DNA of 64,000 nt, taken from assembly GCF_017377745.1 (NCBI RefSeq), contig NZ_JAFVMG010000001.1, forward strand, positions 558,001-622,000, read 5' to 3'. This DNA comes from Acetobacter suratthaniensis. GTDB taxonomy: Bacteria; Pseudomonadota; Alphaproteobacteria; Acetobacterales; Acetobacteraceae. The stretch's first letter is position 1, and each line of letters starts with the position of its first letter. The notes beneath the pieces are model-generated. The model saw only the letters and a program-made list of their open reading frames with translations. It made no database searches and was not told where the DNA came from. Below, piece by piece: positions 12,667 through 21,022 of this stretch. The position numbers and the translations under genes were made by a program.

Positions 12667-12731
12667 TGCAGGGTGATAGTATTAAAAACCAGCCAGTTAA
12701 TAAGGGTTGATCGGTCGACGAGGTGTCAGGC

Positions 12732-13901
12732 ATGGCGACAGGCCGATGCCCCCTGTCGCGCCTCATCATGGTGGAGGGGTATGTGTCTGCGGTAATCGAT
12801 CTGCCTTTCGCCCGGTCCAAGCTGGTTTCGGCTGATCGTATTATTCCCTATCTGCGCCGGATTGATGCCAGCCGCTGGTACAGCAATAACGGCCCGCTCT
12901 GTGTCAGCTTTCAGGAAAGACTGGCCACATTCTGGGGGCTCAAGGCTGAATCTGTCGCCCTGACAACCAATGCTACAGTAGGGATTACGCTTGCCCTTAA
13001 TGCGCATGGCATTAAGCCCGGCCTGCGCTGTCTCATGCCATCATGGACATTTGTAGCGAGTGCCGCAGCGGTCACAGCCGCCCATCTGCTTCCCAGTTTT
13101 GTTGATGTGCTGCCCGACACATGGTGCCCGGACCCGGATCATCTGGAGCAGCTTGCCAAAGAGCCGGATGTCGGGGCGATCCTGATTGTCGTGCCATTTG
13201 GCGCACCTGTTGACCTGAGTGTATGGGATGCGCTGGCTGCGCGTGTGGGCAAGCCAGTCATTATTGATGCGGCGGCGGCATTTGACACATTGCGTCATGA
13301 TGGCCCGATGCCTGTGCCTGCCTGCACCACGGTTGTCAGCCTCCATGCCACGAAGGTTTTTGGTGTTGGGGAAGGTGGCGTGGTTCTGTCGCGCGATACA
13401 GAGCTGGCCGAGCGTGTGCGCCTGCTAACCCGTTTCGGGTTCAACGGTGGGCGTGAGGCGATGTGCCCCGGCGGGAATGCAAAACTATCCGAATATACTG
13501 CCGCCGTGGGGCTGGCGGGGCTGGATGAGTGGTCTGATACCCGCGCGGATTGGCTGAATACGGGCGCACTCTACCATCAGGCTCTGCCGCAGCCCATACG
13601 GGACACCTTGTGGATGGGGCCGTCGTGGGCGACATCGACCCTGAGCCTGCGCTGGCCGGGGAGGGCTTCCACGCTGGCCAGTGCACTGGCCAGCAAGGGT
13701 ATAGGCAGCGTTGCTTGGTGGGGGCAGGGATGTCATGCGCAAAAAGCCTACGCTGGTAGCCGGGCAGAACCGTTACCTGTGACCACACAACTGGGGCAGT
13801 CCGTGCTGGGATTGCCTTTTATGCGGGATATGAGCACGCAGGATGTGGAGCGGGTCAGTGCAGTGCTGATCGAGGAATGGGCCAAAACCTGCACGGACTG
13901 A
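12732..13901 (+). CDS. DegT/DnrJ/EryC1/StrS sugar aminotransferase, VioA-like
   Basis: A 389-residue PLP aminotransferase of the nucleotide-sugar family. Near the N-terminus is WYSNNGPL, then ALTTNATVGITLAL. The cofactor aspartate lies in IIDAAAAFD, and the Schiff-base lysine is K208 in SLHATKVFGVGEGG. HATKVF followed by EGG is the pattern I associate with VioA, which makes dTDP-4-amino-4,6-dideoxyglucose, rather than with the PTKNLG form of FdtB or DesV. That fits a dTDP-4-keto-6-deoxyglucose substrate from RfbA/RfbB at 19-21 kb. GAGG at 12720-12723 sits 8 bases before the chosen ATG; ATG at 12768 is possible. The exact amino position (C4 or C3) is inferred. Confidence 0.85.
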   Translation: MATGRCPLSRLIMVEGYVSAVIDLPFARSKLVSADRIIPYLRRIDASRWYSNNGPLCVSFQERLATFWGLKAESVALTTNATVGITLALNAHGIKPGLRCLMPSWTFVASAAAVTAAHLLPSFVDVLPDTWCPDPDHLEQLAKEPDVGAILIVVPFGAPVDLSVWDALAARVGKPVIIDAAAAFDTLRHDGPMPVPACTTVVSLHATKVFGVGEGGVVLSRDTELAERVRLLTRFGFNGGREAMCPGGNAKLSEYTAAVGLAGLDEWSDTRADWLNTGALYHQALPQPIRDTLWMGPSWATSTLSLRWPGRASTLASALASKGIGSVAWWGQGCHAQKAYAGSRAEPLPVTTQLGQSVLGLPFMRDMSTQDVERVSAVLIEEWAKTCTD

Positions 13902-13935
13902 AATGCCGCCGGGTTGGGGTATTGAGCAAGTTTTG

Positions 13936-13959
13936 GGCGGCTCTGGGTAGAAAGCCGCC
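13936..13959. other. Short hairpin between aminotransferase and glycosyltransferase genes
   Basis: GGCGGCT (13936-13942) pairs with AGCCGCC (13953-13959) around a 10-base loop, about 20 bases before the GTG at 13981. There is no T-run, so it is more likely an mRNA stem or attenuating structure than a terminator. Function is unproven. Confidence 0.3.
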
Positions 13960-13980
13960 GTCAACGCGAAGGGGATCTGT

Positions 13981-15165
13981 GTGACTGCGCATAAAACAAT
14001 TGTTTCGTTTGTAGGGGAAAACGAAAACGGTATTCTGCGGCAGTTAAGTCATGATCTGATGAAGCAGCTCGAACCTGCAGGTTTCTCCGGGCATGTGATT
14101 GATCTGGGTAACCCGGACTGGATTCAGCAGTTCAGCCCCCTGTTGCAGAAAGGCATTTACGTTGCTTTGGGGCATGCAGGCATTGGCGCCGGACTTGAAA
14201 TTAACGGTCAGTCATTGTGGGATGCCGTAAAGGTGCCTTTTGTGTCTATCATGGCAGACCCGCCGAGTGCTGTGCCGCAAAATCATTCCGTAAAATCGCG
14301 CTATGTTGCCAATGCCTATATTTTTGAGGAGTGGCTGCGGTTTCAGCAACGTTTTATCCGTTCGACACAGTTTTCCACGTTGGTTGGGTGTCCCGGTGTC
14401 GTGTCTAACCCGCTGTGTGACCAGACCGCATGGCGCGACCGGTCACAGCGGATGGTTTTTGTAAAAACCGGAGATGACCCGGAGCGCAGGCGCACGAAAT
14501 GGCAAGATCTTCCCCCCCGTTGGCGGCGGGTTCTGGAGGATGCCAGCGCCAGTGCGGTTACGCGGCAGACTGGCGATATCACCGATATTTTTGTTGCGGC
14601 ATGTGATGCCCATCATGTGCAAACGCAGAGCCGGCAAGAGATTTTTTATTTTCTATTTCAGGAATGCGACTTATACGTCCGCAGCTACCGCGCCAATGAA
14701 CTGGTGAAGGCGCTTCTTGCTCTGCCGGTGGATATTTATGGACGCGGCTGGGATCATTTGCGAGATCAGGCTACAAAAGCACGCTTTCACACTGCGATTG
14801 ATGCAGCGCGGCTTGACGCACTCTACGCTGATACACAGTTTTTGCTGAATACCAGCCCGAATGTTGCTTCAGGTATTCACGAGCGTGTTGCCTGTGGGTT
14901 GGCCGCACGTTGCTGTGTTGTCTCGGATAGAAATGAATTTTCAGAGAACAACCTGAAAGAACTGCCAGTTTTTCATGGGTTTGATAGTTTTGATGTCAAT
15001 CTGCCCGCTTATATGAGCGATCTGTACTATTCAAAAATAGATTATACAGACCAGACACTAGCCGGGCTGGATTATGTGCGCGAGCATCTGAGCGCGCAGA
15101 AAATGATGTACGCATTTCTTGAAATTGCTGACGAACTCAGGTTTGCGGAGGCTCTGGTACGCTGA
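13981..15165 (+). CDS. CgeB-like glycosyltransferase (putative)
   Basis: A 394-residue soluble protein starting at GTG with AAGGGGA shortly upstream. The N-terminal half has alternating strand/helix segments (IVSFVGENENGI, YVALGHAGIG, PFVSIMADPPS). The C-terminal half contains PVDIYGRGWDHL and LNTSPNVASGIHERVACGLAARCCVVSD. That resembles the CgeB / GT-B family block in which a glutamate before an (A/V)CG motif contacts the nucleotide sugar. There is no membrane segment or signal peptide. Next to the aminotransferase it is the likely enzyme that transfers the finished sugar to protein or glycan. Target and donor are inferred, and the family call is moderate. Confidence 0.65.
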   Translation: MTAHKTIVSFVGENENGILRQLSHDLMKQLEPAGFSGHVIDLGNPDWIQQFSPLLQKGIYVALGHAGIGAGLEINGQSLWDAVKVPFVSIMADPPSAVPQNHSVKSRYVANAYIFEEWLRFQQRFIRSTQFSTLVGCPGVVSNPLCDQTAWRDRSQRMVFVKTGDDPERRRTKWQDLPPRWRRVLEDASASAVTRQTGDITDIFVAACDAHHVQTQSRQEIFYFLFQECDLYVRSYRANELVKALLALPVDIYGRGWDHLRDQATKARFHTAIDAARLDALYADTQFLLNTSPNVASGIHERVACGLAARCCVVSDRNEFSENNLKELPVFHGFDSFDVNLPAYMSDLYYSKIDYTDQTLAGLDYVREHLSAQKMMYAFLEIADELRFAEALVR

Positions 15166-15184
15166 GTGCTGCAAACCTGTCCAT

Positions 15185-16219
15185 TTATGGAAGGGACAGC
15201 TTGGCGGACTCATTTTCAATGTTCTGGCGGAAGTGAATGATCTTCTCTTCCGAGCTTGACAGAACATTGTCTGTCGCATCCATAGGGAAATCAGGCGAAA
15301 TACGTTTGCAGATTTCGTAATCTTCCTGAAAAACCTGCCTGTTCACGCTGTCTATCGAGTTCAGAAATGAACTGATGACAGCCTCGTTCCTGTCCGGGTT
15401 GTGGAGCTTTGAGCGAAACGTACGGGTTGTGAAATGTGTGCGATTTGCCTCCCGGGATGGGAAGAAATTCTGCAATGAGTATGTATAGCCGAACGTGCTG
15501 GAAATGAACGAAAACGGGAAAATGAAGATTGCCGTATAGTTCTTCCTGTTGTGCTGCACGTCAAAAAAGCGGGCAGTGCGGTTTAGGCCTCGCGTAATGT
15601 GTTCATTGCCGATTGGGGCGCTGAGCACGGAATTGGCAGCATAATAATGGTTCTGCCCGGCCCCGAGCTGGAGCGAGGCCAGCGTCTGGGCATGCACGAA
15701 AGGCACATGATCCGGTTCCAGAGCGTTTTCTACGGCAATACGCCAAGGGCACTCGTAAAAATACCCCTCACGGGAGTGGCGGCGCTCAATATCAGAAGAC
15801 ATTCCGATAAGCACATCCGCCAGATCACCAAGCTGGGTTAACAGATCCATCTGCGGTTTGACGGCAATAAAAAGAAAATCTCCGCACCATGCAGTGTGGA
15901 AAGTGGATAGGCGGGCTTTTTCGAGGGCGCAGGGATTATAGGTTTCCGGCTTGGGAACACGCAGCTTACCACCGCGATACCCCCACCCATGATAGCGGCA
16001 TGAGAGAGGGGCATTGCCTTCATCATCGGTCAGAAATCGTGCGCCCCTGTGGGGGCAGACATTATCAAAGGCCAGAATGGTGCCTTTGTCATTGTAAATG
16101 ACAATATCGCCCAGCATCCATTCAAAACGCATGTAATCACGGTCGTTAGGCAACTCGCTCCGATGACCGATACAGTGCCAGAAGGTCTGGATAAGGTGGG
16201 GATCAAGGCGCAGGGACAT
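15185..16219 (-). CDS. Rieske non-haem iron oxygenase, ring-hydroxylase alpha-subunit type
   Basis: A 344-residue protein with an N-terminal Rieske [2Fe-2S] domain: C55 and H57 in CPHRGA, C74 and H77 in CRYHGWGY. The catalytic domain has a mononuclear iron site: H171 and H176 in EPDHVPFVH, and probably D300 in VFQEDYEIC. All ligands needed for activity are visible. It is the last gene of the ACP-KAS III-SDR-acyltransferase operon and starts 3 bases after the preceding gene. Substrate is unknown; the acyl side chain or the sugar is likely from context. No dedicated reductase or ferredoxin is nearby. Its 3' part is AT-rich compared with flanking genes. Confidence 0.9.
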   Translation of the reverse strand: MSLRLDPHLIQTFWHCIGHRSELPNDRDYMRFEWMLGDIVIYNDKGTILAFDNVCPHRGARFLTDDEGNAPLSCRYHGWGYRGGKLRVPKPETYNPCALEKARLSTFHTAWCGDFLFIAVKPQMDLLTQLGDLADVLIGMSSDIERRHSREGYFYECPWRIAVENALEPDHVPFVHAQTLASLQLGAGQNHYYAANSVLSAPIGNEHITRGLNRTARFFDVQHNRKNYTAIFIFPFSFISSTFGYTYSLQNFFPSREANRTHFTTRTFRSKLHNPDRNEAVISSFLNSIDSVNRQVFQEDYEICKRISPDFPMDATDNVLSSSEEKIIHFRQNIENESAKLSLP

Positions 16220-16222
16220 GGC

Positions 16223-16843
16223 TTATAGCCTGCGTGCTGGAGGCGTATACAGGGTTATGTCGTCGGGCGTGGAGCGTACCACAACCGCGCCGGCACCAAT
16301 CATGCAGCGTTCGCCAACCTGCACATGCGGTAACAGACGCGAACCTGAGCCCATATAGGACGCTGTGCCCAGCTTGGCATTGCCCGTCAGGTCAACATAG
16401 CCTGAAAGTGTTGCATAGGCACCCAACTCCGCATCATGTCCGACGCTGCTGTAACCATTGATGGTTGCAAAAGCCCGCACCGTCGCATTGGCTGAAATAT
16501 CGCAGAACACGCCAACGATAACGCCGGTCTCGATCCGGGCGGAAGCCGAAACCCATGAAGACGGATGAATGAGGGTAGCAAAATGCTCTGTTCCCAGTAG
16601 GGCAGCCAGTTTCTGTTTTGCAGCAGGTGCTCCCACAGCCATTACCAGCTTGTGGTCAGGCCGGGGTGTGTAGTCGATAATACGACCGAGTTGGGGCAGG
16701 GGGTGCTGGTAAGCGCTCATAGGGGCCTCACCATCATCCAGATAGCCTATGAACTGGTCTCCGGCTGCCGTGAGCGAAGGTGTAAACCAGTCATATAGCT
16801 CACGGGCAAACCCGCCTCCACCGACCAGAACATAATCCGTCAT
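16223..16843 (-). CDS. NeuD/PglD/VioB-type sugar N-acyltransferase
   Basis: A 206-residue protein with the two-part structure of the NeuD family. It has an N-terminal Rossmann-like sugar-nucleotide domain (LVGGGGFARELYDW, residues 6-19), then a left-handed beta-helix of hexapeptide repeats. The catalytic base would be H136 in SSVGHDAELG, matching the PglD histidine. PglD and VioB acetylate a UDP- or dTDP-4-amino sugar using acetyl-CoA. Here, beside an ACP and a KAS III, the acyl donor may instead be a 3-hydroxyacyl-ACP or its CoA ester. It starts 9 bases after the SDR stop and precedes the Rieske gene by 3 bases. Confidence 0.87.
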   Translation of the reverse strand: MTDYVLVGGGGFARELYDWFTPSLTAAGDQFIGYLDDGEAPMSAYQHPLPQLGRIIDYTPRPDHKLVMAVGAPAAKQKLAALLGTEHFATLIHPSSWVSASARIETGVIVGVFCDISANATVRAFATINGYSSVGHDAELGAYATLSGYVDLTGNAKLGTASYMGSGSRLLPHVQVGERCMIGAGAVVVRSTPDDITLYTPPARRL

Positions 16844-16852
16844 TGTATCCGC

Positions 16853-17608
16853 CTACCCAGCCGTATAGCCGCCATCAACCGTCCATGAGGCACCAGTGAC
16901 CCACCCCGCTGCGGATGAGAGCAGAAAGACAGCCGTGGCGGCAACATCTTCCGGCTTGCCAAAACCAAGAGCATGCGCGTGCTCATAGGCGCTCACGCCT
17001 TCTTCGGTCAGGCCATGAGTAAGCCGCTCGTGCATTTCTGTCCGGACGCCCCCTGCGGCAATGGCATTAACCCGGAGGGGCTTGAGTTCCCATGCGAGAG
17101 AGCGGGTCAGCCCTTCAATTCCGGCTTTGGCCGCCGAGTAGGTGCTTAAGCCCTGCTGGCCCCGATGAGCCGCAGCGGAAGACATGAAAACGATCGAACC
17201 ACCGGGGCGGAAGGTGTTGCGCTTTCCGGCAGCTGCGGCAAAACCGATTGCACCAAATAGGGCCGCGTTGAATACGTCATCAATCTGCTTTTGCTTGACC
17301 AGCCGGGCCGGGCGGCTCAACTCCAGACCGGCGGCATGGAAAAGACCATCAAGCCCTTCCGTCTGCTTTGCTGCGGCAAGCATGAGGTTGCTGGCCTCTT
17401 CCGCCGAGTTCAGGCTGGCTGCGATCATGCTGTGCCCTTCGCCAGGAAGGGTGGCGAGGGTTTCATGCAACTGCTGTTCGTTGCGCCCGCTTGCAATAAC
17501 CCGACCGCCGCATTGGGCAATCATGAGGGCCGTGGCGCGGCCCAGACCGGATGATGCGCCGGTTACCAGAATAACGCGGCCTTCAAGGGCATCGGGAGCG
17601 AAAATCAT
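16853..17608 (-). CDS. FabG-like short-chain dehydrogenase/reductase
   Basis: A 251-residue classical SDR. The cofactor motif is TGASSGLG (residues 16-23), there is a HAAG segment near 91, the catalytic serine lies in FMSSAAA (143/144), and Y157 and K161 form YSAAK. Basic R42 after the second strand suggests NADPH use. In this operon it would reduce the 3-oxoacyl product of KAS III to a 3-hydroxyacyl chain. The ATG at 17608 overlaps the KAS III stop by 4 bases (ATGA), so the two are probably translated in step; a longer frame to 17629 is unlikely. It could instead act on a keto-sugar. Confidence 0.88.
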   Translation of the reverse strand: MIFAPDALEGRVILVTGASSGLGRATALMIAQCGGRVIASGRNEQQLHETLATLPGEGHSMIAASLNSAEEASNLMLAAAKQTEGLDGLFHAAGLELSRPARLVKQKQIDDVFNAALFGAIGFAAAAGKRNTFRPGGSIVFMSSAAAHRGQQGLSTYSAAKAGIEGLTRSLAWELKPLRVNAIAAGGVRTEMHERLTHGLTEEGVSAYEHAHALGFGKPEDVAATAVFLLSSAAGWVTGASWTVDGGYTAG

Positions 17609-18624
17609 ACTTCGATGACTGACGCACACTGGAGGCGGACATCCTTGAACACGGCAGCCCCCCAGGACAGGCCAACACCAAAACCCGCCATAAGCAGGGT
17701 GGTGGGCGCACTCTTCATCTGATCCGCCGCATTGGTGCAGAAAAGCAGAGGAATTGAGGCTGAACTGGTGTTGCCAAACTGCTCGATGTTGATGGGTAGG
17801 GCATCAGCCGGGATTTTGAGCTTTTTCACAATATGCTGGAGAATGAACCTGTTCGCCTGATGCAGGGCGAAAATATTGATATCGCTTATGGTCAGGCTTG
17901 CCTGCTCCAGAACGTTCTTGATCAGGACAGGCACTGTGCTGATCGTAAAGCCAAAGACCGCGCTGCCATCCATGTGCAGCGTATTGTCACGCGGGGAAAC
18001 CGGGCCACACAGGCGATAACCACCCGCCGGGACAGTCAGCAGCTGTGCACCAGTGCCATCGGTACCCAGATCAAAATATGTCTGGGGGGCGTGTTCATCA
18101 TACTCGAATGCGGTGGCCGAGCCAGCGTCACCAAACAGCATGGCCGTGCCACGGTCATCCGGGTCGAGCATCTGAGTGCTGGTATCACCGGCCAGGAGCA
18201 GTACACGCTTCAGACCGGCAGCCATGAGGGCCGCCACCAGCCATGTGCCGTAAACGTAACCAGAACAGCCCAAGCCTACGTCAAAAGCCTGACACTGGGG
18301 GGAAAGACCGAGGCGACCATGCAGGATGCAGGCCGTGGCGGGCATGCGCTGATCGGGTGTCTGAGAGACAAAAATCAGCGCATCAACACTTTCTGGTGCC
18401 CATTGCAGGTCAGCCAGAAGCTTTTCCGCCGCAGCGAAGCACAAATCCCCCGCTGTTTGCCCCGGTTCAGCCACGTGCCGGCTCAATACACCCGTGAGTT
18501 TTGCAACATCCGCGATGGTTTTTTCATCAAAGCGATCAAGAAAGCTTTGATTGTCTAATTGCTTTCTGGGAACGGCGCAGGTCACGCCTTGAATCGTAAC
18601 GCCTTTAACCGAGCTTTTAGACAT
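17605..18624 (-). CDS. 3-oxoacyl-ACP synthase III (FabH-like)
   Basis: A 339-residue thiolase-fold condensing enzyme with a complete Cys-His-Asn triad: C120 in GLGCSGYVYG, H255 in ALHQANRF, N285 in QFGNTSSAS. KAS III enzymes join an acyl-CoA starter with malonyl-ACP. This copy is not in a plsX-fabH cluster but between an ACP and a ketoreductase-type SDR, so a dedicated pathway role is likely, for example making acetoacetyl-ACP. It begins 17 bases after the ACP gene and is coupled by ATGA to the SDR. Housekeeping FabH would be expected elsewhere in the genome. Confidence 0.93.
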   Translation of the reverse strand: MSKSSVKGVTIQGVTCAVPRKQLDNQSFLDRFDEKTIADVAKLTGVLSRHVAEPGQTAGDLCFAAAEKLLADLQWAPESVDALIFVSQTPDQRMPATACILHGRLGLSPQCQAFDVGLGCSGYVYGTWLVAALMAAGLKRVLLLAGDTSTQMLDPDDRGTAMLFGDAGSATAFEYDEHAPQTYFDLGTDGTGAQLLTVPAGGYRLCGPVSPRDNTLHMDGSAVFGFTISTVPVLIKNVLEQASLTISDINIFALHQANRFILQHIVKKLKIPADALPINIEQFGNTSSASIPLLFCTNAADQMKSAPTTLLMAGFGVGLSWGAAVFKDVRLQCASVIEV

Positions 18625-18641
18625 GGATGCTGCTCTTTACT

Positions 18642-18860
18642 TTAGGCCGATTTGGAAACGAGGTTTTGGATATCTGCTACTATTTTACATTCAACCAGTG
18701 CACTGCCGGAAACAAGCTGGCCATACACTTCATCAATCAAGGCAACGCAGGAAATGATCGCCATTGAATCCCACTGTTCTTCATCAAGTTTGAAGTCGGG
18801 TGTAATGGTTTCGGGTTCAACTTCCAGAATTTCGGCAAGACCTGAATAAAATTCCTGCAT
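18642..18860 (-). CDS. Dedicated acyl carrier protein
   Basis: A 72-residue acidic protein with the carrier fold. The phosphopantetheine serine is S32 in QWDSMAII, where housekeeping ACPs normally have DSL. It is the first gene of a five-gene leftward operon and follows a well-formed promoter (18907-18936). By hand count 95 of 219 bases are G or C (43%), far lower than most of the window. Such stand-alone carriers occur in sugar N-acylation and flagellin-glycan clusters; the partner here is most likely the adjacent KAS III. Confidence 0.9.
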   Translation of the reverse strand: MQEFYSGLAEILEVEPETITPDFKLDEEQWDSMAIISCVALIDEVYGQLVSGSALVECKIVADIQNLVSKSA

Positions 18861-18906
18861 TGTTTTTGCCTTTGTGTACGTGTCTGTTTTTTAAAAAGTT
18901 AGGTTA

Positions 18907-18936
18907 ATTGTATTGAAATGCCTGTATCGTTGTCAA
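18907..18936 (-). promoter_or_regulatory. Promoter for the ACP-KAS III-SDR-acyltransferase-Rieske operon
   Basis: Read on the minus strand: TTGACA (18936-18931), an 18-base spacer, then TACAAT (18912-18907), about 47 bases before the ACP start codon. The -35 is perfect and the -10 has one mismatch. Confidence 0.7.
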
Positions 18937-18998
18937 TGGCGGCGGGGGCGGCCGCCCGGGGCGGATGCACGTGACTGTTTCTACTTACCTCACTGCTT

Positions 18999-19027
18999 TT
19001 GGTATGTTAGGGAGGCCAGAGTATAAT
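18999..19027 (+). promoter_or_regulatory. Promoter for rfbB-rfbA
   Basis: TTGGTA (18999-19004), a 17-base spacer, and a perfect TATAAT (19022-19027), 31 bases before the rfbB ATG. It diverges from the ACP operon promoter; the two -35 boxes are about 60 bases apart, with a very GC-rich tract between them (about 18937-18966). A shared regulator could bind in this gap, but no clear operator is seen. Confidence 0.7.
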
Positions 19028-19058
19028 TTAAAAAACAGTTTTCTCTGCGAGATATAAA

Positions 19059-20114
19059 ATGAAAATCCTGTTGACCGGCGGTTGTGGCTTCATTGGCTCA
19101 GCAGTGATCAGGCAGGCCATCCGGGACGCAGGGCATAGCATTATCAATATCGACAGGATGACTTACGCGGCATCGGAAGCGGCGTTGGAGGATATGCTCC
19201 TCCATCCTGACCATACGCTGCTGCGGCTTGATATTTGCGATGCGCAAAGTATCCGCGATGTTTTTGTGCGGTATCAGCCGGATGCGGTTATGCATCTGGC
19301 AGCAGAAAGTCATGTGGACCGCTCGATTGAAGGGTCAGCGGCTTTTATTCAGACGAATATTGTTGGAACCTCCGTTATGCTGGAAGCCGCGCGGGAGTAT
19401 TTCAACGGGTTGAGCAGCGAGCGGAAAGAAAAATTCCGTTTCATGCATATTTCAACAGATGAGGTCTTCGGGGCTCTGTCTGATAGGGCGCCTGCGTTTA
19501 ACGAGACAACGCCTTATGACCCCCGCAGTCCGTATTCGGCCTCCAAGGCGGCATCCGATCATCTGGCGCGGGCATGGATGCACACTTATGGGTTGCCAGT
19601 GATTGTTTCTAATACGACCAATAATTACGGCCCGTGGCAATTTCCGGAAAAGCTGATCCCTCTTGTTCTAATCAATGCGATTGAAGAACGGCCTCTGCCG
19701 GTTTACGGCGATGGCAGAAATATTCGTGACTGGCTGTTTGTGGAAGACCATGCGCAAGCCCTGCTCAAGGTGCTTACACACGGTGTGCCGGGGCAGACTT
19801 ACTGTATAGGAGCGCGGCAGCCGCGCCGGAATATTGATGTTGTAAAAGCCATCTGTGCCTTGGTTGATCAGACAATGCCTAGCCCGCACGGTGCGCGTGA
19901 ACGGCTGATTACCCATGTGCCGGATCGGCCGGGACATGATCATCGCTATGAAATTGATCCATCCTTTGCCGAGCAGGCGCTGAACTGGAAAGCCGCGCAC
20001 GATTTCGAGCATGGGCTGGCGGCAACCTTATCGTGGTATCTTGAGCACCGTTCGTGGTGGGAGGATATTCGCCGGGAAAAATACTCAGGGCACCGTCTGG
20101 GAGTTATGTCATGA
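19059..20114 (+). CDS. rfbB: dTDP-glucose 4,6-dehydratase RfbB
   Basis: RfbB (RmlB) turns dTDP-glucose into dTDP-4-keto-6-deoxyglucose. The 351-residue extended SDR has TGGCGFIG (residues 6-13) for NAD, HLAAESHVDRSI, the catalytic Thr-Asp-Glu in HISTDEVFG (near 133-135), and YSASK with the catalytic Tyr/Lys near 159-163. NNYGPWQFPEKLIPL follows. In pathways to rhamnose it is followed by rmlC and rmlD; neither is present here. Together with the aminotransferase at 12.7 kb this points to an amino-deoxy sugar. It overlaps rfbA by ATGA. Confidence 0.96.
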   Translation: MKILLTGGCGFIGSAVIRQAIRDAGHSIINIDRMTYAASEAALEDMLLHPDHTLLRLDICDAQSIRDVFVRYQPDAVMHLAAESHVDRSIEGSAAFIQTNIVGTSVMLEAAREYFNGLSSERKEKFRFMHISTDEVFGALSDRAPAFNETTPYDPRSPYSASKAASDHLARAWMHTYGLPVIVSNTTNNYGPWQFPEKLIPLVLINAIEERPLPVYGDGRNIRDWLFVEDHAQALLKVLTHGVPGQTYCIGARQPRRNIDVVKAICALVDQTMPSPHGARERLITHVPDRPGHDHRYEIDPSFAEQALNWKAAHDFEHGLAATLSWYLEHRSWWEDIRREKYSGHRLGVMS

Positions 20115-21022
20115 TCAGGAAAGGTATCATCCTCGCAGGTGGTTCTGGCACGCGGCTTTATCCTGTTACCCAGATTATTTCCAAACAGCTTCTGCCGATA
20201 TTCGACAAGCCAATGATTTACTATCCGCTATGCACGCTGATGCTCGCGGGTATTCGGGATATCCTGATCATTGCCACCCCGCATGACCTGCCGCAGTTTC
20301 GGGCGCTCCTGCGTGATGGTGCGCATCTGGGTGTAAGGATTTCTTATGCGGAGCAGCCAAAGCCGGAAGGGCTGGCGCAGGCATTCCTGATTGGTGAAAA
20401 ATGGATTGATGGAGAAGGCTGCGCCCTGATTCTGGGGGATAACCTCATTCATGGCAGCTATCTGTCCATTATGCTGCGCAAGGCCAGTGCGCGCACCGAG
20501 GGTGCGACAATTTTTGCCTATCAGGTCAGAGACCCCGAGCGGTATGGCATTCTGGCCTTCGATCAGGCGGGCAAGCCTGCGGATATAGTGGAAAAGCCGG
20601 TGACACCCCCATCGAACTGGGCGGTGACCGGACTATATTTTTATGACCGGCATGTGACCGATTATGCGCGGCGTATCAAACCGTCTTTGCGTAATGAACT
20701 CGAAATTACCGATCTGAATAATATCTACCTGCACAAGAACGCCATGCGGGTAGAACGGCTGGGCCGGGGCGTTGCCTGGCTGGATGCGGGAACGCCGCAG
20801 TCTTTGCTACAGGCCGCGACCTTTGTGCAGACCATTCAGGACAGGCAGGGCAACCTTGTGGGCTGTCCTGAGGAAGTGGCCTTCCACATGAGCTTCATTG
20901 ACGCAGACCAACTGCGTGAGCAGGCACGGGCGATCGAGAAAACCGAACTGGGCAGCATTCTCATGAAAATCGCTGATAGGGAAATCTGTAGTTACGAGCC
21001 CGGTAACGAGCCTATCATCTGA
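20111..21022 (+). CDS. rfbA: Glucose-1-phosphate thymidylyltransferase RfbA
   Basis: RfbA (RmlA) makes dTDP-glucose from glucose 1-phosphate and dTTP. The 303-residue protein begins MIRKGIILAGGSGTRLYP, the nucleotidyltransferase signature, followed by KQLLPIFDKPMIYYP, ILGDNLIHG and VVEKP-type (IVEKP) sugar contacts, then ELEITDLN. It is translationally coupled to rfbB by a 4-base overlap; an in-frame extension upstream to 20054 lies inside rfbB and is rejected. The product feeds RfbB directly, the first step of the putative amino-sugar pathway. Confidence 0.96.
   Translation: MIRKGIILAGGSGTRLYPVTQIISKQLLPIFDKPMIYYPLCTLMLAGIRDILIIATPHDLPQFRALLRDGAHLGVRISYAEQPKPEGLAQAFLIGEKWIDGEGCALILGDNLIHGSYLSIMLRKASARTEGATIFAYQVRDPERYGILAFDQAGKPADIVEKPVTPPSNWAVTGLYFYDRHVTDYARRIKPSLRNELEITDLNNIYLHKNAMRVERLGRGVAWLDAGTPQSLLQAATFVQTIQDRQGNLVGCPEEVAFHMSFIDADQLREQARAIEKTELGSILMKIADREICSYEPGNEPII

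What the first reader, a model, noticed from the sequence alone, without database searches (positions are those of the whole stretch)
12732..21022. Likely pathway for an N-acylated 4-amino-4,6-dideoxy sugar with an unusual oxygenase step
Seen: VioA-like aminotransferase, CgeB-like transferase, five-gene operon (ACP, KAS III, SDR, NeuD-type acyltransferase, Rieske oxygenase) and rfbB-rfbA with no rmlC or rmlD. Known: RfbA and RfbB give dTDP-4-keto-6-deoxyglucose; VioA aminates it; Pseudomonas syringae flagellin carries viosamine with a 3-hydroxybutanamido group made with ACP and KAS III type genes. Inference: this locus makes an acylated aminosugar, its acyl group built on a dedicated carrier and further oxidised. 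I know of no described acetic acid bacterium pathway of this composition.
Basis: partly seen in the sequence, partly recalled or inferred. Interest (0 to 1): 0.85.

Follow-up and report, generated by a model that had tools for sequence, protein, structure and literature searches.

The report
Oxidised acyl-aminosugar genes, probably for flagellin
A vinegar-type bacterium carries a compact gene set that very likely builds a rare sugar with a short fatty side chain, adds one more oxygen with an unstudied oxygenase, and probably puts the sugar on its swimming filament; relatives of the oxygenase sit beside similar gene sets in other bacteria.

Summary
In detail: nine genes at 12723-21022, with expected motifs in the seven proteins checked. 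Seven of them (aminotransferase, CgeB-type glycosyltransferase, ACP, KAS III, SDR, NeuD-type acyltransferase, Rieske oxygenase) stay together in five Acetobacteraceae genomes, mostly at different sites; rfbBA joins in two. The window's genome has one RfbB and no RmlC. The set resembles the Pseudomonas syringae viosamine island, plus a Rieske gene, minus vioM, with another glycosyltransferase. Flagellin as acceptor is inferred: one relative has the block 4 kb from fliC, and Burkholderia glumae has vioA, KAS III, ACP, SDR, acyltransferase and Rieske genes behind flagellin; in the window's genome the block is far from flagellin. Published gene lists from Xanthomonas and (partial) B. pseudomallei show similar sets without a stated sugar function. 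Rieske relatives found by sequence alone lie near KAS III in 6 of 7 high-scoring loci and 0 of 35 lower-scoring loci examined, while the sugar genes vary. This suggests the oxygenase acts on the acyl chain; no product was measured. New variant of a known kind, moderate interest.

The parts
12723..13901 (+). DegT/DnrJ-type sugar aminotransferase (VioA/DesI-like), likely makes dTDP-4-amino-4,6-dideoxyhexose; true start probably 12768-12783
   Evidence: 53-80% identical in four other Acetobacteraceae carriers
13981..15165 (+). CgeB-type glycosyltransferase, likely transfers the finished sugar
   Evidence: Pfam Glyco_trans_1_2 E 2.5e-6; in all five carrier blocks; 28% identical over 310 aligned columns to a protein of a similar cluster in G562
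15185..16219 (-). Rieske non-haem iron oxygenase, predicted hydroxylation step
   Evidence: tree; neighbourhood test
16223..16843 (-). NeuD/VioB/PglD-type hexapeptide N-acyltransferase
   Evidence: TIGR03570 150.1 bits; perosamine N-acetyltransferase and VioB structures lead the PDB list
16853..17629 (-). SDR ketoreductase (VioR-like)
   Evidence: 57% identical to the B. glumae cluster SDR
17605..18624 (-). KAS III (VioS-like) condensing enzyme
   Evidence: Cys/His/Asn motifs; the one other match in the genome is 31% identical
18642..18860 (-). dedicated acyl carrier protein
   Evidence: DSM serine; 43% identical to the B. glumae cluster ACP
18907..18936 (-). promoter-like site before the ACP-to-Rieske operon (consensus match only)
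   Evidence: 4 sites in the region against 5.5 expected, so weak
18999..19027 (+). promoter-like site before rfbBA (consensus match only)
   Evidence: weak
19059..20114 (+). rfbB, dTDP-glucose 4,6-dehydratase; the only match in the genome at E <= 1e-40
20111..21022 (+). rfbA, glucose-1-phosphate thymidylyltransferase
   Evidence: its ATG overlaps the rfbB stop codon

Best explanation
The locus makes an activated, N-acylated 4-amino-4,6-dideoxyhexose and transfers it, most likely to flagellin. RfbA and RfbB make dTDP-4-keto-6-deoxyglucose; the aminotransferase aminates C4 (viosamine, Qui4N, most likely). KAS III condenses acetyl-CoA with malonyl on the dedicated ACP, the SDR reduces the product to 3-hydroxybutyryl-ACP, and the NeuD-type enzyme moves it to the 4-amino group. 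The Rieske oxygenase adds an oxygen to the acyl chain (calculated residue mass 247.106 instead of 231.111), probably with electrons from housekeeping partners, since none of the nine block genes is a ferredoxin or reductase partner (the genome was not searched for one). The CgeB-type glycosyltransferase attaches the sugar. Shown here: gene families, motifs, co-conservation, flagellar neighbourhood in some relatives, and the Rieske-KAS III association. Inferred: every reaction, the sugar configuration, the acyl length, the oxidised position and the acceptor.
For: Family assignments and motifs. Seven-gene block in five genomes. The genome has one RfbB, in this block, and no RmlC; the three carriers without rfbBA in the block have RfbB elsewhere. 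Same enzyme kinds as the P. syringae viosamine island, where mutants and mass spectrometry were used. G192: block 4.4 kb from fliC, with fliL- and fliM-like ORFs (named by eye) between. B. glumae: flagellin, fliD, fliT, TPR protein, vioA, KAS III, ACP, SDR, acyltransferase, Rieske. G488: flagellin and flhA/flhB/fliRQP-like ORFs (by eye) around such a set. Rieske relatives near KAS III: 6 of 7 high-scoring loci against 0 of 35 lower-scoring loci examined.
Against: In the window's own genome flagellin is on another contig, and I saw no such genes beside it. Flagellin co-occurrence in the genus is not significant (4 of 4 carriers against 29 of 49 genomes; 0.11). Flagellin was seen in only four of the clusters read. 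The aminotransferase is 29% identical to the B. glumae VioA and far below the DesI cut-off. No vioM in the block; the glycosyltransferase is not the VioT kind. The Rieske target is not shown. P. syringae and Xanthomonas protein sequences were not compared.
Confidence: 0.6

Rival explanations
1. The same sugar is made, but for lipopolysaccharide, capsule or another surface glycan, not flagellin.
For: Own block lies between a PLP-decarboxylase-like and a cobT-like gene (named by eye), on another contig than flagellin; in G060 and G195 I recognised no flagellar genes in the flanks read; the glycosyltransferase is small and CgeB-type, and 0 of 5 carriers has a GT41 enzyme, the kind found in the B. 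glumae cluster.
Against: G192, B. glumae, G390 and G488 clusters hold flagellin within the stretch read; all five carriers have flagellin.
Confidence: 0.25
2. The Rieske enzyme oxidises the sugar ring or the 4-amino group rather than the acyl chain.
For: Rieske oxygenases act on many substrates, and amine oxidation by some members is known (recalled). In the five acetic acid bacteria, B. glumae, G390, G922, G551 and G488 a DegT-type aminotransferase gene is in the same stretch.
Against: Sugar genes differ between clusters (rfbBA here; CDP-sugar-like genes in G390, by eye; pseG/pseI in A. brasilense; nonulosonic-type genes in G410, by eye) while KAS III and SDR stay; no aminotransferase match in the stretches of A. 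brasilense, A. thermophilum and G562 C18.
Confidence: 0.25
3. The ACP/KAS III/SDR/Rieske genes make a small free metabolite and only neighbour the sugar genes.
For: Published text on B. pseudomallei puts bpsl3323-3329 under fatty acid biosynthesis, in a sentence on secondary metabolites (PMC4855414, passages).
Against: The NeuD-type acyltransferase and the aminotransferase stay with them in five genomes at mostly different sites; the P. syringae vioR mutant has only rhamnose on flagellin.
Confidence: 0.08
4. The aminotransferase gives the 4-epimer (Fuc4N-type) or a 3-amino sugar instead of viosamine.
For: All NCBIfam scores are far below the curated cut-offs.
Against: DesI is the best model for all six family members scanned; the 4-amino-4,6-dideoxygalactose model (PRK11706) scores 68.9 against 176.8 bits for the window protein.
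Confidence: 0.2

Closest known systems
Viosamine island of Pseudomonas syringae pv. tabaci 6605 (vioA, vioM, vioT, vioS, vioB, vioR, acp; PMC3927599: part 1 of 5 of the text and sections 2.3 and 2.4 read)
   Same: Aminotransferase, KAS III, ketoreductase, acyltransferase, ACP and a glycosyltransferase in one block; by analogy N-3-hydroxybutyryl viosamine
   Different: Rieske oxygenase added; no vioM in the block; glycosyltransferase is 394 aa, not the 1,173-aa VioT; rfbBA inside the block. Compared by annotation, not by sequence
Burkholderia glumae BGR1 flagellar region, record NZ_DQ996271; bpsl3323-3329 of B. pseudomallei (PMC4855414, passages)
   Same: B. glumae ACP, SDR, acyltransferase and Rieske 42-57% identical to the window's; its listed KAS III 38%, a second unlisted KAS III stretch 50% over 201 residues
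   Different: GT41-type TPR protein instead of CgeB type; VioA 29% identical; flagellin-linked. The B. pseudomallei table rows seen name a transferase, two keto/oxo acyl-ACP synthases, an SDR and the Rieske protein only
Xanthomonas flagellar cluster genes XCV2007-XCV2013 (PMC3826837, table passages)
   Same: Rieske, acetyltransferase, two SDRs, 3-oxoacyl-ACP synthase, ACP, aminotransferase in a row, next to fleQ
   Different: Gene list only; sequences not compared; the word glycosylation does not occur in that text
Rieske non-haem iron oxygenases such as glycine betaine monooxygenase and naphthalene dioxygenase alpha subunit
   Same: [2Fe-2S] and mononuclear iron motifs
   Different: Best matches to these cover mostly residues 10-184; groups with the KAS III-linked proteins, support 88/78

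Membership tests
Viosamine-type flagellin glycan island | DegT aminotransferase acting at C4 of dTDP-4-keto-6-deoxyglucose (vioA) | tested here: inconclusive
   Right family; DesI best model at 176.8 bits, cut-off 650; activity not testable
Viosamine-type flagellin glycan island | KAS III, ketoreductase and ACP genes in the block (vioS, vioR, acp) | tested here: met
   (ACP score just under the Pfam cut-off); conserved as a block
Viosamine-type flagellin glycan island | NeuD/VioB-type N-acyltransferase | tested here: met
   TIGR03570 150.1 bits, under the cut-off 160.8; perosamine N-acetyltransferase and VioB structures lead the list
Viosamine-type flagellin glycan island | Methyltransferase vioM in the block | tested here: not met
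   None of the nine genes is a methyltransferase; an FkbM methyltransferase adjoins the Rieske gene in relative G192
Viosamine-type flagellin glycan island | VioT-type large transferase | tested here: not met
   Glycosyltransferase is 394 aa with Glyco_trans_1_2 only; VioT is 1,173 aa
Viosamine-type flagellin glycan island | Sugar is attached to flagellin | not testable with these tools
   Only neighbourhood evidence, in relatives
Rieske non-haem iron oxygenase | CxH and CxxH cluster site and two-His plus carboxylate iron site | tested here: met
   C55, H57, C74, H77, H171, H176, D300 invariant in the 11 aligned sequences, the window's included; that D300 is the third ligand is by recalled analogy
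dTDP-rhamnose pathway | RmlC present | tested here: not met
   No RmlC match in the genome
dTDP-rhamnose pathway | RmlD present | not tested
   Not among the nine genes; genome-wide search not run

The most novel reading that the evidence does not exclude
These Rieske proteins form an undescribed oxygenase group that hydroxylates short acyl chains on a dedicated ACP or already on the aminosugar, as a portable add-on to KAS III-based acyl modules of flagellar and nonulosonic sugars; where an FkbM methyltransferase adjoins (G192, G390, G922) the new hydroxyl may then be methylated. In B. pseudomallei, whose published list has two KAS entries, the same logic (a trihydroxyhexanoyl chain on Qui4N, calculated 291.132) would fit the reported 291.1 Da flagellin modification. 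That last part is arithmetic only: a sialic acid residue (291.095) has the same nominal mass, and the review reports acetyl, formic acid, possibly acetamidino and ammonia losses and a role of the O-antigen cluster, which do not speak for it.
Probability: 0.4. Interest if true: 0.7.

Novelty: new variant of a known kind. Interest (0 to 1): 0.5.

Why it matters
Flagellar sugars shape motility and how hosts see bacteria, and their N-acyl groups matter: in P. syringae the terminal transfer depends on the acyl group (PMC3927599). An oxygenase that repeatedly accompanies the acyl-building genes would be a chemical step that I did not find described in the papers I could search, with a simple +16 Da test. 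It would also suggest a function for genes now listed only as Rieske protein or fatty acid biosynthesis in flagellar regions of plant-associated and pathogenic bacteria. The acetic acid bacteria offer a harmless place to test it.

Tried and rejected
Structure prediction of the Rieske protein from two sequences failed (mean pLDDT 31.7), so no fold search was made and the second job was not used. Repeats around the block looked short and chance-like; no island ends were recognised. Promoter and terminator scans were at the shuffle level. That the block follows flagellin presence within the genus was tested and is not significant. That the Rieske gene is an ordinary oxygenase beside the block by chance was judged unlikely: 0 of 17 stretches around other Rieske genes in Acetobacteraceae held KAS III, although several of these stretches are short.

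Limits of the neighbourhood test. The 17 were taken from the upper part of the long list, not all of it. From (70 of 398 genomes matched) I opened stretches for the upper part of the list only, and skipped one locus in that range (G574) and the two lower Rieske rows that share a G562 stretch were counted as one. The boundary between the 7 and the 35 loci was set after seeing the neighbourhoods, so the 1.3e-6 is descriptive. The 11 'module' loci include two Azospirillum loci opened because they were KAS III hits, so 11 of 11 is partly circular; the 7 against 35 comparison leaves these out, and leaves out the window and its four Acetobacteraceae relatives. The Rieske group has tree support 88/78, below the starred level. 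RmlD, ferredoxin partners and P. syringae or Xanthomonas sequences were not searched.

Literature: searches (open-licence library; I saw listings and starts of abstracts: 20 of 45, 25 of 77, 15 of 177, 20 of 185, the rest complete). No listing named a function for a Rieske protein in flagellin or aminosugar synthesis; passages of PMC4855414 and PMC3826837 hold such genes as list entries. The Xanthomonas oryzae ten-gene flagellin glycosylation island paper (title seen in a reference list) and the B. pseudomallei glycan paper are not held, and a B. cenocepacia flagellin glycan paper recalled by me was not held either, so prior description there is possible.
Full report
WHAT IS THERE. Nine ORFs fill 12723-21022. 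Profile searches name them DegT aminotransferase, Glyco_trans_1_2 glycosyltransferase, Rieske oxygenase, NeuD-type hexapeptide transferase, SDR, KAS III, ACP, RfbB and RfbA. Motifs looked for in seven of them are in place. RfbB and RfbA pass curated NCBIfam cut-offs; the ACP (19.9 of 20.8 bits) and the NeuD-type protein (150.1 of 160.8) fall just short; the aminotransferase scores best with DesI (176.8 bits, cut-off 650). Several genes have lower GC (ACP 0.434, glycosyltransferase 0.508, Rieske 0.513) than the window mean of 0.595, while the aminotransferase (0.603) and SDR (0.607) do not.

CO-CONSERVATION. The Rieske protein has close relatives in A. peroxydans (87%), two other genomes of the genus (66%) and one of another genus of the family (69%). 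In the family scan 94 of 150 genomes had some Rieske match, but beyond the window's genome and G060 the best was 31% identical at 1.9e-22. In the genus scan 4 of 49 genomes, own included, carry it; in the order scan 5 of 395. In all four relatives the aminotransferase, glycosyltransferase, ACP, KAS III, SDR and NeuD genes accompany it. A. peroxydans has the block at the same site as the window, but without rfbBA; the other three have other flanks; G060 has rfbBA in the block. A KAS III at E at most 1e-60 occurs in 2 of 200 family genomes sampled, the window's and G060.

SUGAR SUPPLY. The window's genome has one RfbB at E at most 1e-40, this one, and no RmlC. The other four carriers have RmlC, and the three without rfbBA in the block have RfbB elsewhere. 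The own RfbB is closest to that of A. peroxydans on another contig (75.5%), as if the pair had been kept for the aminosugar after the rhamnose branch was lost; that history is inference, and RmlD was not searched.

FLAGELLAR LINK. All five carriers have flagellin, and so do 30 of the 50 genomes over the cut-off; within the genus 4 of 4 carriers against 29 of 49 is not significant (0.11). In G192 flagellin lies at 149869-150279 and the Rieske gene at 154690-155730 of one contig, with fliM- and fliL-like ORFs (by eye) and an FkbM methyltransferase between. B. glumae record NZ_DQ996271 reads flagellin, fliD, fliT, TPR protein, vioA, KAS III, ACP, an unlisted second KAS III stretch with one stop, SDR, acetyltransferase, Rieske; identities to the window proteins are Rieske 43%, SDR 57%, ACP 43%, acyltransferase 42%, listed KAS III 38%, VioA 29%. 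In the window's genome flagellin is on another contig, and I saw no such genes in the 19.5 kb read around it. Against a simple flagellin story: of the clusters read, flagellin was seen in four (G192, B. glumae, G390, G488).

THE RIESKE GENE FOLLOWS THE ACYL MODULE. Using Rieske profiles alone, scans of 398 phylum genomes, 250 genomes of the order of G390 and again 398 with a broader profile gave new loci. G410, G390 and G922, then three of the next four stretches (G562 C18, G551, G488) have KAS III within the stretch read; the fourth (G562 C9) has its Rieske gene at a contig end and has none. None of 35 lower-scoring loci examined has it: 4 and 12, 2 and 17 from the family scan. One-sided Fisher 1.3e-6, descriptive because the boundary was set afterwards and only part of the lists was opened. 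The sugar genes differ: CDP-sugar-like genes in G390 and nonulosonic-type genes in G410 (by eye), pseG and pseI in Azospirillum brasilense. The 12 KAS III-linked Rieske proteins form one group against 23 others, support 88/78. FkbM methyltransferases adjoin the Rieske gene in G192, G390 and G922. Hence the inference that the acyl chain is the substrate.

COMPARISON WITH WHAT IS KNOWN. In P. syringae pv. tabaci 6605 the island vioA, vioM, vioT, vioS, vioB, vioR, acp makes 2-O-methyl-N-(3-hydroxybutyryl) viosamine on flagellin; mutants in vioA, vioB, vioT, vioR and vioM were analysed, while in what I read vioS and acp rest on homology (PMC3927599: part 1 of the text and sections 2.3 and 2.4). 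No Rieske gene is in its table. PMC3826837 (table passages) lists XCV2007-2013 in a Xanthomonas flagellar cluster: Rieske, acetyltransferase, two SDRs, 3-oxoacyl-ACP synthase, ACP, aminotransferase. PMC4855414 (passages) puts bpsl3323-3329 of B. pseudomallei, Rieske included, under fatty acid biosynthesis, raised in mutants that also raise many flagellar genes, though fliC itself was unchanged. A review gives the B. pseudomallei flagellin glycan as 291.1 Da (PMC3958885, section 4.5). So the composition is not new to gene lists; I found no paper assigning the oxygenase a role, within the limits of an open-licence library seen partly by listings.

VERDICT. It is a viosamine-type acyl-aminosugar locus of an Acetobacter species near A. 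peroxydans, differing from the tested island by the Rieske oxygenase, the CgeB-type transferase, the built-in rfbBA and the missing vioM. Calculated residue masses are 231.111 before and 247.106 after oxidation. All enzymatic steps are inferred.

Noticed in passing
L131 (G562 contig C18) 377-3899: One acyl-module cluster carries two Rieske oxygenase genes, each neighboured by a hexapeptide-like gene named by eye, as if two oxidation steps occurred.
   Followed up: no
L063 20494-21547: The second KAS III stretch in the B. glumae record is interrupted by a stop in the frame read and is not among the listed genes.
   Followed up: no
L048 10826-12019 (G192): A 397-aa protein without a Pfam match lies between flgB/flgC-like ORFs (by eye) and fliC near the block.
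   Followed up: no
window 18861-19058: Divergent promoter-like sites between the ACP operon and rfbB; consensus matches only.
   Followed up: partly
L065 and L066 (Azospirillum plasmids): Rieske-type (SRPBCC), KAS III, SDR and GNAT genes lie in surface-sugar regions: one with neuB, the other with acylneuraminate cytidylyltransferase and phytanoyl-CoA dioxygenase-like genes.
   Followed up: partly
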